Positions 5,030-26,046 of a DNA stretch of 64,000 bases are shown in pieces. Each line of letters begins with the position of its first letter. Position 1 is the first letter of the stretch. The DNA comes from a virus, in IMG/VR virus record IMGVR_UViG_3300042261_002391, positions 24,469-88,468 of that record. One strand, 5' to 3'. Made by a program: the position numbers and the translations under genes. The notes below the pieces were generated by a model that was not told the origin of the DNA, searched no databases, and saw nothing but the letters and a program-made list of their open reading frames with translations.

Positions 5030-5287
5030 TTAATTTAAGAGTTTACGACTTCTTTTTGATACCAGCTTTAACTCATAACCAATACCAATCAATTCAGCTT
5101 TTAATTCGTTTATTTCGGCTTCTGTTGGCTTCTTGCTGTTCTTCACAACATAATCATAGTCACAAGTACTGTGCTGTCCTACGTGTGCATAACAACAAAC
5201 ATCTCCGTTTTGATTTTCAACTTCATAAGGGAATATTGCTAGTACTTCTCCTTTGAACTTCCTGAACATTACTCTTATTAGTTTCAT
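5030..5287 (-). CDS. Conserved hypothetical phage protein
   Basis: 85 residues with the pattern RVMFRKFKGEVLAIFPYEVEN, then CCYAHVGQHSTC and a C-terminal GIGYELKLV. This is a widespread small phage/plasmid family of unknown function. First gene of the unit driven by the promoter at 5314-5342. Confidence 0.8.
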   Translation of the reverse strand: MKLIRVMFRKFKGEVLAIFPYEVENQNGDVCCYAHVGQHSTCDYDYVVKNSKKPTEAEINELKAELIGIGYELKLVSKRSRKLLN

Positions 5288-5313
5288 AACAGTAAGATAT
5301 AAGCTTGTATTTC

Positions 5314-5342
5314 TTCTACGTTTTTAATTAAAAAAGGTTACA
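5314..5342 (-). promoter_or_regulatory. ECF-type promoter, variant -10 (CGTAGAA)
   Basis: TGTAACC, 15 nt, CGTAGAA on the minus strand. It lies just downstream of the sigma gene. Confidence 0.7.
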
Positions 5343-5353
5343 AATGAGTATGC

Positions 5354-5944
5354 TTAAATTGCATACTCATTTTTCAGGCTTTCAAGTTCTGATTGAAGCA
5401 TTTCCCGACACCGGAATACCATTCCTTTAACTGTGCCTAATGGAACTTCGCAAAGTTCAGCTATTTCGTTATATTCCATTTCCTTAATGAAAAACAGTTC
5501 AGCAATACGCTGATATTTTGGTTTCAAACGACTGATAGCAGAATTAATCGTATTCATTGATTCATTGCTTTCAATCGTTTCCTGAACATCGTTACTTGCT
5601 TCAAATTGAAACAGTTCGTTTCCATCTTCGTCAACATAACCGTCAACGTTGATATTCTTACCAAACTTTGCATTTTTGGTTCTCCAATAGTCAATTACCC
5701 TATTGTTTGCAATGCTGTAAAGCCATGTAGTGAAAGCATTTTTGCTATCATATTGGCTGATAAAACGCTGAACTTTCATAAAGGTATCAGCAGTTAAATC
5801 TTCGGCTGTCATTTCGTCTTTCACCTTACCATTGATGAAGAACTTAACCTGATTGTAAAACTCATTGTAAACTCCGGTAATGTTTCCGGTTGAAACAGCT
5901 AACTGAATTGCTTGTTCTTTTGTCTTTGTCATTGTAGTTGCCAT
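5354..5944 (-). CDS. ECF-type RNA polymerase sigma factor
   Basis: 196 residues with only sigma regions 2 and 4, as in ECF (group 4) sigma factors. Region 2 spans about residues 20-95 (AEDLTADTFMKVQRF, then TWLYSIANNRVIDYW). Region 4 spans about 135-185, with the helix-turn-helix YNEIAELCEVPLGTVKGMVF. A linker rich in Asp/Glu joins them. ECF factors typically read a -35 with AAC and a -10 with CGT, which is what the TGTAACC/CGTATAA sites in this window show, so this is the likely reader (inference). Its own promoter (5988-6019) is host-type, so it could be made first. No anti-sigma gene is obvious next to it. Confidence 0.9.
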   Translation of the reverse strand: MATTMTKTKEQAIQLAVSTGNITGVYNEFYNQVKFFINGKVKDEMTAEDLTADTFMKVQRFISQYDSKNAFTTWLYSIANNRVIDYWRTKNAKFGKNINVDGYVDEDGNELFQFEASNDVQETIESNESMNTINSAISRLKPKYQRIAELFFIKEMEYNEIAELCEVPLGTVKGMVFRCREMLQSELESLKNEYAI

Positions 5945-5987
5945 TGTTGTAAGTATTAAGGTTAAACGTTTGTTCTGAATTGTTTAG

Positions 5988-24541: not shown

Positions 24542-24880
24542 TTAATTTTTTAATGCTAAATCTAATGATTGAGTAATTTTACGCATCTCCGGAGTACCGT
24601 AGAAGCATACAGAGGTCATTTGGTTGTCGATGTCAGGTTCGTGGAACGAAATAACATCAGCACCATTAGAAACTAATTTTGAATAAAGTTTTTGGAGTTC
24701 ATCTTCATTATTAATTTCAAGTACGATAATGTAATTAGAAGCTTCATACCATCTATTAAACAATTTATTATTTTTTATCGAAAAATCAGCAATGGCATGA
24801 TTTGATTGTGCAATCATTAATCCATTACTTAAATCATTTCTAACAACAATAACTAATTTATCAATCTACTTATCTTTCAT
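24542..24880 (-). CDS. Peptidyl-tRNA hydrolase (PTH2-like) with an in-frame TAG at codon 5
   Basis: The conserved part, KLVIVVRNDLSNG through SNHAIADF, WYEASNYIIVLEI and FHEPDIDNQMTSVCFYG, matches the PTH2-type family, which frees tRNA from stalled peptidyl-tRNA. The first internal ATG (24817) would cut off the first strand, KLVIVVRNDL. Reading upstream gives ATG-KDK-TAG-ID-KLV; the TAG (24866-24868) is also the stop of the upstream endonuclease, in the same frame. Full-length protein would need TAG readthrough, a non-ATG start (ATT) after the TAG, or is not made. An amber-suppressor tRNA lies 1.1 kb upstream. Confidence 0.7.
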
Positions 24881-25783
24881 AACTAAACAATTTAATTTAT
24901 TAATAATATTTTCGTTATATTTTATTCTAATCATTCTTATTTTATTTTCAAAGCAATAGTTGTTTTTTATTAAGTCCCTTCTTTTAATGTTTAAAAATTC
25001 TGACTTCCCGCCAAATGCATCAATTGGCTTATAATGTTGAATTCCATCAAATTCAATGACAATATTTAAATCAGGTAAATAAAAATCAAATCTAAGATTA
25101 CCATTATCGATACAATTATCAAATGATTTTTCTCTTATATAGAGTATATTTTCATTGTTTAAAAATTCAGCAATAATAGATTCTCCTTTTGATTCATTAC
25201 ATATTGGACATCCAATTCCTCTCATGTGATGTACTGGTGCTTGTTGAAACATACCGTGATTAGGACATATTATTGTAACTTTGGTTTTATTGTTAATATA
25301 ATTAACCAATGAATAGTCATACTTTCTATTATGAATATTATTCGATGTTTCAATAAATTCTTCCTGAGATAATTTAAGTTTATTAGCCTTATATTCAATT
25401 GCGCATTTAGGACAGCCTGACTTTTTTAAAATGTGACTTTTAGGCGTTTGTTGAAATATACCGTGTTTTTTACACTGAATTTTTATTTTGGTATAATAAT
25501 TTACATAATCAACCAATGTATAATCATACGTATCGCCATGTATCTCGACACATTTAGCAATAATATCTAATGTGGTATGCCTATTTTTTTGCAAAATTTT
25601 AGTATACCCACATTTTTTACAACCTTGACCAGCTATATGATTTTTAGGCGTTTGAAAAAAATCGCCATGAATTGGACACGTGATAATTATTTTTGTAGTG
25701 TTATTAATATATTCGACTTTATTATAGTCATACTTATCACCATGTTTTTTTATTGCATTAAGTATAAATTTACTAGTATTCAT
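24866..25783 (-). CDS. Homing-type endonuclease (Vsr/EDxHD-like) with zinc-finger repeats
   Basis: 305 residues. Three repeats of about 60-70 residues carry HGDxYDYxxVxYxN, then CPIHG/CKKHG/CPNHG and a CxxC finger. The C-terminal domain (RFDFYLPDLNIVIEFDGIQHY, then RRDLIKNNYC, MIRIKY) is a Vsr-like PD-(D/E)xK nuclease. It is a mobile gene inserted within a duplicated PTH2 region and ends in TAG. Late-type box at 25796-25804. Confidence 0.85.
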   Translation of the reverse strand: MNTSKFILNAIKKHGDKYDYNKVEYINNTTKIIITCPIHGDFFQTPKNHIAGQGCKKCGYTKILQKNRHTTLDIIAKCVEIHGDTYDYTLVDYVNYYTKIKIQCKKHGIFQQTPKSHILKKSGCPKCAIEYKANKLKLSQEEFIETSNNIHNRKYDYSLVNYINNKTKVTIICPNHGMFQQAPVHHMRGIGCPICNESKGESIIAEFLNNENILYIREKSFDNCIDNGNLRFDFYLPDLNIVIEFDGIQHYKPIDAFGGKSEFLNIKRRDLIKNNYCFENKIRMIRIKYNENIINKLNCLVMKDK

Positions 25784-25795
25784 AATATCGTTTAC

Positions 25796-25804
25796 TATAA
25801 ATAC
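25796..25804 (-). promoter_or_regulatory. Late-type GTATTTATA box
   Basis: Minus strand, 13 bp before the endonuclease ATG. Confidence 0.6.
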
Positions 25805-25814
25805 TAAGTATTTG

Positions 25815-25885
25815 TCTAAAAGATAACCAGCTTTTAAATCCTTTCTGGTAATCGTAACTAATTTAACCTAGTGTGTGTGTCTCAT
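25815..25885 (-). pseudogene. 5' remnant of a PTH2-like gene, interrupted by the endonuclease
   Basis: ATG-RHTH-TAG-V-KLVTITRKDLKAGYLL: the KLV..R.DL..G stretch is the N-terminus of the PTH2-like family and aligns with the intact copy (KLVIVVRNDLSNG) downstream of the endonuclease. It also has a TAG (25868-25870) just before KLV. The frame runs on into the endonuclease ATG. It has a late-type box and a host-type promoter of its own. Confidence 0.6.
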
Positions 25886-25902
25886 AACTTTTAGAGTTTA
25901 AT

Positions 25903-25911
25903 TATAAATAC
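25903..25911 (-). promoter_or_regulatory. Late-type GTATTTATA box
   Basis: Minus strand, 18 bp before the ATG of the PTH2 remnant. Confidence 0.6.
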
Positions 25912-25921
25912 TATTGAATTG

Positions 25922-25951
25922 CAAATGTAATGAATAATTTTTAATATACAA
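25922..25951 (-). promoter_or_regulatory. Host-type promoter (TTG-N19-TACATTTG)
   Basis: Perfect TAnnTTTG on the minus strand between the suppressor tRNA and the PTH2 remnant. Confidence 0.75.
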
Positions 25952-25972
25952 GCAATTTCAAATAAATTTTTG

Positions 25973-26046
25973 AGATTCTAGTGGGATTCGAACCCACGAT
26001 TTTCAAGTTTTAGAGACCTGTGCAATAACCACTCTGCCATAGAACC
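25973..26046 (-). tRNA. tRNA-Sup(CTA), amber suppressor
   Basis: Acceptor GGTTCTA/TAGAATC, D-arm GCAG/TTGC, anticodon stem CAGGT/ACTTG with a canonical loop CTCTAAA (U33, anticodon CTA, A37), T-arm GTGGG/CCCAC, U73. CTA pairs with the codon UAG. The D-arm resembles that of the TTG tRNA at 62913, hinting at Gln, but the amino acid is not proven. Confidence 0.9.

What the first reader, a model, noticed from the sequence alone, without database searches (positions are those of the whole stretch)
24542..26046. Amber suppressor tRNA next to a peptidyl-tRNA hydrolase gene with an early in-frame TAG
The tRNA at 25973-26046 has a textbook anticodon loop with CTA. About 100 nt downstream, and again at 24880, a PTH2-like frame reads ATG, three or four codons, TAG, then the conserved KLV..R.DL strand. 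Both copies keep the TAG at nearly the same place, so it may be a sense or regulatory codon read by the suppressor. PTH2 frees tRNA from stalled peptides, which would link amber readthrough to translation rescue.
Basis: partly seen in the sequence, partly recalled or inferred. Interest (0 to 1): 0.85.

Follow-up and report, generated by a model that had tools for sequence, protein, structure and literature searches.

The report
Phage gene gated by suppressor tRNA
Many giant phages start one gene, a tRNA-recycling enzyme (PTH2), with a built-in stop signal one to a few codons after its start, and almost always carry a matching tRNA that can read through that stop, so the gene seems to be switched by that tRNA; this gives a candidate answer to what these phage suppressor tRNAs are for.

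Summary
In the window, PTH2 (24865-24545, -) is preceded by ATG AAA GAT AAG TAG with no start codon between the TAG and the first core strand; a second 5' copy at 25885-25823 reads ATG AGA CAC ACA CAC TAG. They flank a homing-endonuclease ORF. A CTA tRNA lies 87 nt upstream of the first copy.

Among 137 distinct phage PTH2-like loci, 88 have a stop shortly after the start: 84 TAG and 4 TAA. Every suppressor detected beside such a gene is cognate: CTA with TAG (65), TTA with TAA (4/4). A TGA-bearing gene pairs with a TCA tRNA, and two cultured sister phages switch together (Atu_ph07 TGA/TCA; Phosso TAG/CTA). The base after the stop is a purine in 87/88, against 26/67 natural TAG stops. The genomes are not recoded; no other gene in four genomes shows the pattern.

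Best reading: PTH2 is made only when the phage suppressor tRNA reads its early stop, coupling peptidyl-tRNA recycling to suppressor activity. Cognate matching is shown by sequence; readthrough, feedback and hydrolase activity are inferred. Exceptions (suppressor present, no stop) exist. I found no report of this in the open literature I could search.

The parts
25972..26046 (-). tRNA with CTA (amber) anticodon; U73, body most similar to the phage's own tRNA-Cys
   Evidence: ARAGORN; similarity and discriminator
25868..25885 (-). first PTH2 5' end: ATG AGA CAC ACA CAC TAG (start plus in-frame amber), next base G
   Evidence: sequence
25823..25867 (-). displaced PTH2 strand-1 fragment VKLVTITRKDLKAGY, running in frame into the endonuclease ORF
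   Evidence: translation; same layout in L034
24866..25783 (-). homing-endonuclease-like ORF (DUF723 / DUF4379 / CapR-like zinc-ribbon repeats), ends at the second TAG
   Evidence: Pfam; relatives in G004 and G001
24866..24880 (-). second PTH2 5' end: ATG AAA GAT AAG TAG; the TAG is also the stop of the endonuclease ORF; next base A
   Evidence: sequence
24542..24865 (-). PTH2-like gene body, 107 codons plus TAA, no start codon before strand 1
   Evidence: Pfam PF01981; AlphaFold pLDDT 96.6, strand 1 = residues 3-9; Foldseek to archaeal/human PTH2

Best explanation
A suppressor-gated gene. Ribosomes start at the ATG and meet a stop codon, usually at codon 3 to 5. Normally release factor ends translation there, or a one- to four-residue peptidyl-tRNA drops off. 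Only when the phage's own suppressor tRNA for exactly that stop codon is made and charged does the ribosome continue and make PTH2. PTH2 output therefore reports suppressor activity against release factor, and the enzyme then recycles the peptidyl-tRNAs that early stops, stop readthrough and 3'-end stalling produce. Supported by sequence: the conserved stop, absence of another start, cognate tRNA close by on the same strand, stop/anticodon co-variation, purine context, uniqueness of the gene in four genomes. Inferred: that the tRNA is expressed and charged, that readthrough occurs, the amino acid inserted, and the physiological purpose (feedback or timing). The confidence given is for suppressor-dependent synthesis of PTH2; I put about 0.4 on the peptidyl-tRNA-recycling feedback as its purpose.
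For: Relatives L001-L005 and L007-L008 keep ATG-(1-3 codons, 8 in L002)-TAG with no later start. 137 distinct loci: 88 stops, 84 TAG + 4 TAA; in-locus suppressors 65 CTA with TAG, 4 TTA with TAA, none non-cognate. L080: TGA inside the body with a TCA tRNA. Prediction then test: Atu_ph07, whose one published suppressor is UCA, has ATG-(5)-TGA-ATT before a PTH2 paralogue; sister phage Phosso has ATG AAA TAC TAG GTT and two CTA tRNAs. Other cultured phages: GAP32, SNUABM/BF, CBB, XbC2, Kaldavass, Arash, ME3, pT24, and an HD-PTH2 fusion in XacN1 and RAS14. Suppressor on the same strand 98/98, median 894 nt away. Purine after the stop 87/88 vs 26/67 at natural TAG stops. PTH2 the only such gene in G000, G001, G034, G004. 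Suppressors of mixed descent.
Against: No protein, ribosome-profiling or charging data. In 23 PTH2-like loci without the stop a suppressor is still nearby (L103, L006, L110, Lak phages, C1 mycobacteriophages), so the link is not only through the stop. About a dozen stop-bearing loci have no detected suppressor (e.g. L031, L046, L073, L086, L105-L107), some on short contigs. In Alice and Myrna a GTG right after the TAG has the better Shine-Dalgarno spacing, so no readthrough is needed there. TTA-suppressor phages still end 67-78% of genes with TAA, so suppression must be weak, conditional or tolerated. The divergent PTH2 subfamily lacks the canonical Gly-Lys motif, so hydrolase activity is unproven.
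Confidence: 0.8

Rival explanations
1. Short leader ORF with re-initiation: AUG-X-stop is a minigene or leader peptide, and PTH2 starts at a non-canonical codon just after the stop (often AUU or GUU).
For: The next codon is often ATT (36 of 74), a known rare start; minigenes and peptidyl-tRNA drop-off involve Pth (literature).
Against: Does not explain why TAA goes with TTA, TGA with TCA and TAG with CTA tRNAs. The next codon can be AAT, ACA, GAA, GGC. Strand 1 follows at once in many cases (KLV one codon after the stop).
Confidence: 0.08
2. Whole-genome or late-gene amber recoding (code 15 type), with PTH2 as one ordinary recoded gene.
For: Phages with CTA tRNAs that read TAG as Gln are known. 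L093 and L108 carry extra TAGs inside PTH2.
Against: Code 15 does not lengthen genes in the window and TAG ends 9 of 74 genes; no enrichment of conserved in-body TAGs; the codon is not seen as a Gln codon at this place within the stop-bearing families; tRNAs are not Gln-like in most.
Confidence: 0.04
3. A particular amino acid delivered by a special tRNA is needed at this position (a pyrrolysine-like use).
For: ARAGORN labels these tRNAs Pyl (the label follows from the anticodon only).
Against: Suppressor bodies and discriminator bases differ widely (A 38, G 15, T 10, C 4); the position is in a variable N-terminal tail ahead of strand 1; the stop type itself changes.
Confidence: 0.04
4. The suppressor tRNA mainly acts on host or other phage genes, and PTH2 is linked because it cleans up after suppression; the stop in PTH2 only times it. 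This is compatible with suppressor-dependent PTH2 synthesis and differs in what the suppressor is mainly for.
For: Loci with a linked suppressor but no stop in PTH2; Lak phages, which read TAG as Gln, keep a TTA tRNA by PTH2.
Against: Suppressed stops are still common natural stops in the same genomes; no second target found in four genomes.
Confidence: 0.35

Closest known systems
Phage alternative genetic codes (TAG to Gln, code 15) in crAss-like and Lak phages, with CTA suppressor tRNA
   Same: phage-encoded suppressor tRNA reads a stop in phage mRNA
   Different: here the genome keeps the standard code, a single gene carries the stop, at a fixed place near the start, and the stop type follows the anticodon (TAG, TAA or TGA)
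Programmed stop-codon readthrough
   Same: conserved in-frame stop with homologous sequence after it, purine 3' context
   Different: decoded by a dedicated linked tRNA rather than by leaky near-cognate decoding; stop sits mostly at codons 3-5, so the short product is a tiny peptide
Phage lambda bar minigenes / peptidyl-tRNA drop-off and Pth
   Same: AUG plus a few codons plus stop, and a connection to peptidyl-tRNA hydrolase
   Different: here the minigene is the 5' end of the hydrolase gene itself and is read through in frame
PTH2 (PF01981) of archaea and eukaryotes; phage PTH2 noted by Iyer et al. (PMC7824862)
   Same: fold, by sequence and by structure
   Different: a divergent phage subfamily without the Gly-Lys motif, often beside a second, canonical, stop-free PTH2

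Membership tests
PTH2 (PF01981) | sequence above family cut-off and PTH2 fold | tested here: met
   40 bits vs cut-off 23; Foldseek 2zv3, 1wn2, 3erj, 1q7s, TM 0.71-0.85
PTH2 (PF01981) | canonical G-K motif before the AQ..HA helix and the DSG/DAG..T motif | tested here: not met
   replaced by GYQ-like and EPD..T in the divergent subfamily; R, D, Q, H and T invariant. The claim kept is 'divergent PTH2-fold protein', not 'proven hydrolase'
PTH2 (PF01981) | peptidyl-tRNA hydrolase activity | not testable with these tools
   needs enzyme assay
Phage genetic code 15 | TAG used as a sense codon in many genes | tested here: not met
Phage genetic code 15 | CTA suppressor tRNA encoded | tested here: met
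Programmed readthrough | conserved in-frame stop with selected coding sequence after it | tested here: met
Programmed readthrough | readthrough product detected | not testable with these tools
   needs proteomics or profiling
Cognate suppressor-gated expression | stop identity matches suppressor anticodon across lineages | tested here: met
   TAG-CTA 65, TAA-TTA 4, TGA-TCA L080 and Atu_ph07; no mismatch
Minigene / leader with re-initiation | a usable standard start codon just after the stop | tested here: not met
   no ATG/GTG/TTG before strand 1 in the 88 loci (that is how the class was drawn; 44 others do have one); next codon varies

The most novel reading that the evidence does not exclude
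A stand-alone regulatory circuit made of a dedicated nonsense-suppressor tRNA and one target gene with a matching early stop, which senses the balance between suppressor and release factor and controls peptidyl-tRNA recycling during infection. It has kept working while the suppressor tRNA was replaced many times and the stop switched between UAG, UAA and UGA. It would be the main job of suppressor tRNAs in non-recoded jumbo phages.
Probability: 0.5. Interest if true: 0.95.

Novelty: new variant of a known kind. Interest (0 to 1): 0.9.

Why it matters
Suppressor tRNAs are reported in many jumbo phages that use the standard code, and authors searched for their target without success (XacN1, PMC5852040; Summit, PMC9022506). 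This names a specific, shared target with a testable prediction in cultured phages. It also shows a gene whose stop codon, rather than an amino acid, appears to be under selection at the start of translation, and it explains why this gene is missed or truncated in GenBank records (GAP32, CBB, SNUABM/BF, XbC2, Atu_ph07).

Tried and rejected
Whole-genome code 15: rejected. Group I intron between the two copies: not pursued, because both copies hold overlapping strand-1 sequence and L034 shows the same endonuclease layout. Two early genome-wide scans for other stop-bearing genes were swamped by antisense frames and were redone with filters. A first pattern for CTA tRNAs had too long a minimum gap and missed D-arm-poor tRNAs; corrected. 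TTCTAA hits in W02 and W03 were read as tRNA-Arg(TCT) by hand and not counted. Depletion of the suppressed stop as terminator was tested and not clearly seen. XacN1 and RAS14 were first taken as exceptions, then found to carry ATG AAG TAG at the start of a longer HD-PTH2 fusion. A genome-contig scan found almost nothing in bacteria. Supplement files and paywalled papers, including the main paper on phage stop-codon recoding, could not be read.

Full report
What is in the window. The window is part of an 88 kb phage record (G000) with 39 tRNA genes. On the minus strand, in order: a tRNA with anticodon CTA (26046-25972); ATG AGA CAC ACA CAC TAG (25885-25868) followed by VKLVTITRKDLKAGY; a 305-codon ORF (25783-24866); ATG AAA GAT AAG TAG (24880-24866) followed by a 107-codon PTH2 (24865-24545). 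Everything from 25885 to 24542 is one frame apart from the two TAGs. The 305-codon ORF has zinc-ribbon repeats and related homing-type families and relatives elsewhere in related phages. It is a homing-endonuclease-like gene that split the PTH2 5' end and rebuilt it, TAG included. A second phage (L034) has the same layout at the same place...G#TQDHKLVTITRQDL-[endonuclease]-...MENT#IHPNLITIVRSD... (# = TAG).

The protein. The region after the TAG is a PTH2 by Pfam, by profile search of solved structures and by fold: the AlphaFold model has pLDDT 96.6 and its best matches are archaeal and human PTH2. Strand 1 of the fold is residues 3-9, directly after the TAG, so any start further down would remove part of the core. 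The subfamily is divergent: the canonical Gly-Lys motif is replaced, and several of these genomes also hold a second, canonical PTH2 with no stop. It is almost absent from bacterial genomes.

Relatives keep the stop. The first eight relatives showed ATG-(1-3 codons, 8 in L002)-TAG in seven of eight, with a CTA tRNA in the same locus. A survey of 137 distinct PTH2-like loci gave 88 with a stop 1-12 codons after an ATG (two with GTG/TTG only) and no start before strand 1: 84 TAG and 4 TAA. Chance placement of an ATG 1-4 codons before a TAG in these loci is 9.3%; observed 79 of 88. The base after the stop is A or G in 87 of 88, against 26 of 67 natural TAG terminators in related genomes. These sequences are related, so the p-values overstate independence; the next codon nevertheless varies (ATT, GTT, GTA, ATA, AAT, ACA, GGC, GAA...).

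The stop matches the tRNA. Among stop-bearing loci, 65 TAG loci have a CTA tRNA in the held DNA (55 by default ARAGORN, 10 by relaxed search or motif), and all 4 TAA loci (L025, L051, L360, L391) have a TTA tRNA; none has only a non-cognate suppressor. L080 carries its stop as TGA inside the first segment of the body and has a TCA tRNA. The nearby suppressor is on the same strand in 98 of 98 cases, median 894 nt away. A clade that at first seemed to lack a suppressor has D-arm-poor CTA tRNAs close to PTH2; 2 of 83 background windows give such a relaxed hit.

Cultured phages and a forward test. The pattern is present in GAP32, CBB, the SNUABM/BF group, XbC2, Kaldavass, Arash, ME3 and pT24, with CTA tRNAs found by ARAGORN (XbC2 through L255). 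XacN1 and RAS14 carry ATG AAG TAG at the start of a longer HD-PTH2 fusion whose sequence is conserved from the stop onward; XacN1's authors had reported two CUA suppressors and no target. RaK2 and Hallingskeid have neither the stop nor a detected CTA tRNA. Atu_ph07 was chosen as a forward test because its published suppressor is UCA: one of its PTH2 paralogues reads ATG ATT GGC GAA CAC TTT TGA ATT..., with no start until after strand 1, and GenBank annotates a truncated protein. Its 73%-identical counterpart in phage Phosso reads ATG AAA TAC TAG GTT, and Phosso has two CTA tRNAs, one 4.6 kb away.

Not recoding. In four related genomes (G000, G001, G034, G004) the PTH2 gene is the only one with start-TAG-conserved frame and no other start (one other TAG case has its own ATG nine codons on), and conserved in-body TAGs are not enriched (6/137 TAG, 21/653 TAA, 9/143 TGA). 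TAG still ends 4-15% of genes, and TAA still ends 67-78% of genes in the TTA-suppressor phages. The suppressor tRNAs are of mixed descent, with different discriminator bases. So what is conserved is a stop plus a tRNA that can read it, not one amino acid.

Exceptions. 44 loci have a usable start; 23 of these still have a suppressor in the locus, including Lak phages with a TTA tRNA about 600-800 nt upstream and mycobacteriophages Alice and Myrna, where GTG directly after the TAG has better Shine-Dalgarno spacing. So PTH2 and suppressor are linked even without the stop, which suggests a functional tie (recycling of peptidyl-tRNA made by suppression) beyond simple gating. About a dozen stop-bearing loci have no suppressor found, several on short contigs.

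Mechanism. Most likely the early stop makes PTH2 depend on the phage suppressor tRNA, with failed attempts costing only a one- to four-residue peptide or a dropped-off peptidyl-tRNA, itself a PTH substrate (drop-off in early elongation: PMC10192219). This would couple peptidyl-tRNA recycling to the activity of the phage tRNA set. Sequence evidence supports the dependence; the purpose is inferred.

Literature. Open-access searches found phage suppressor tRNAs, recoded phages and phage PTH2, but no link between them; two papers say the suppressor's target is unknown. Paywalled work could not be checked.

Noticed in passing
window 24866-25783 and L034 about 5211-5982: A homing-endonuclease-like gene sits at the same site in PTH2 in two phages, leaves a displaced strand-1 fragment upstream, and rebuilds the PTH2 5' end including the TAG, which doubles as its own stop codon.
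   Followed up: partly
L041, L050, L055, L056, L059, L060, L070, L091 (offsets): Suppressor tRNAs with CTA anticodon and a degenerate or missing D-arm, missed by default ARAGORN.
   Followed up: partly
L168, L275, L276, L277 (Lak phages): Lak phages, which read TAG as Gln, carry a TTA (ochre) suppressor tRNA 600-800 nt upstream of PTH2; Lak-B also has ATG AAT ATC TAA ATA in frame shortly before the start.
   Followed up: partly
L100 7744-7902, L101 7738-7890: Paired tRNAs with unusual anticodon loops that may read UGA, downstream of stop-free PTH2; the sister L103 has two CTA tRNAs in the same place.
   Followed up: no
L163 (XacN1 ORF364) and L171 (RAS14): HD-domain protein fused to a PTH2 domain, starting ATG AAG TAG, in phages with CTA tRNAs.
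   Followed up: partly
records (Myrna, XacN1, G011, G006, G037, LR745208): Jumbo phages often encode two PTH2 paralogues, one canonical and stop-free, one divergent and linked to a suppressor tRNA.
   Followed up: partly
JN882285, KU574722, MW879342, OP292654, MF403008: PTH2 genes are truncated or missing in GenBank annotation because of the early stop.
   Followed up: yes
L093, L108, L354: Additional in-frame TAG inside the PTH2 body; in L093 at a position that is Gln in relatives.
   Followed up: no
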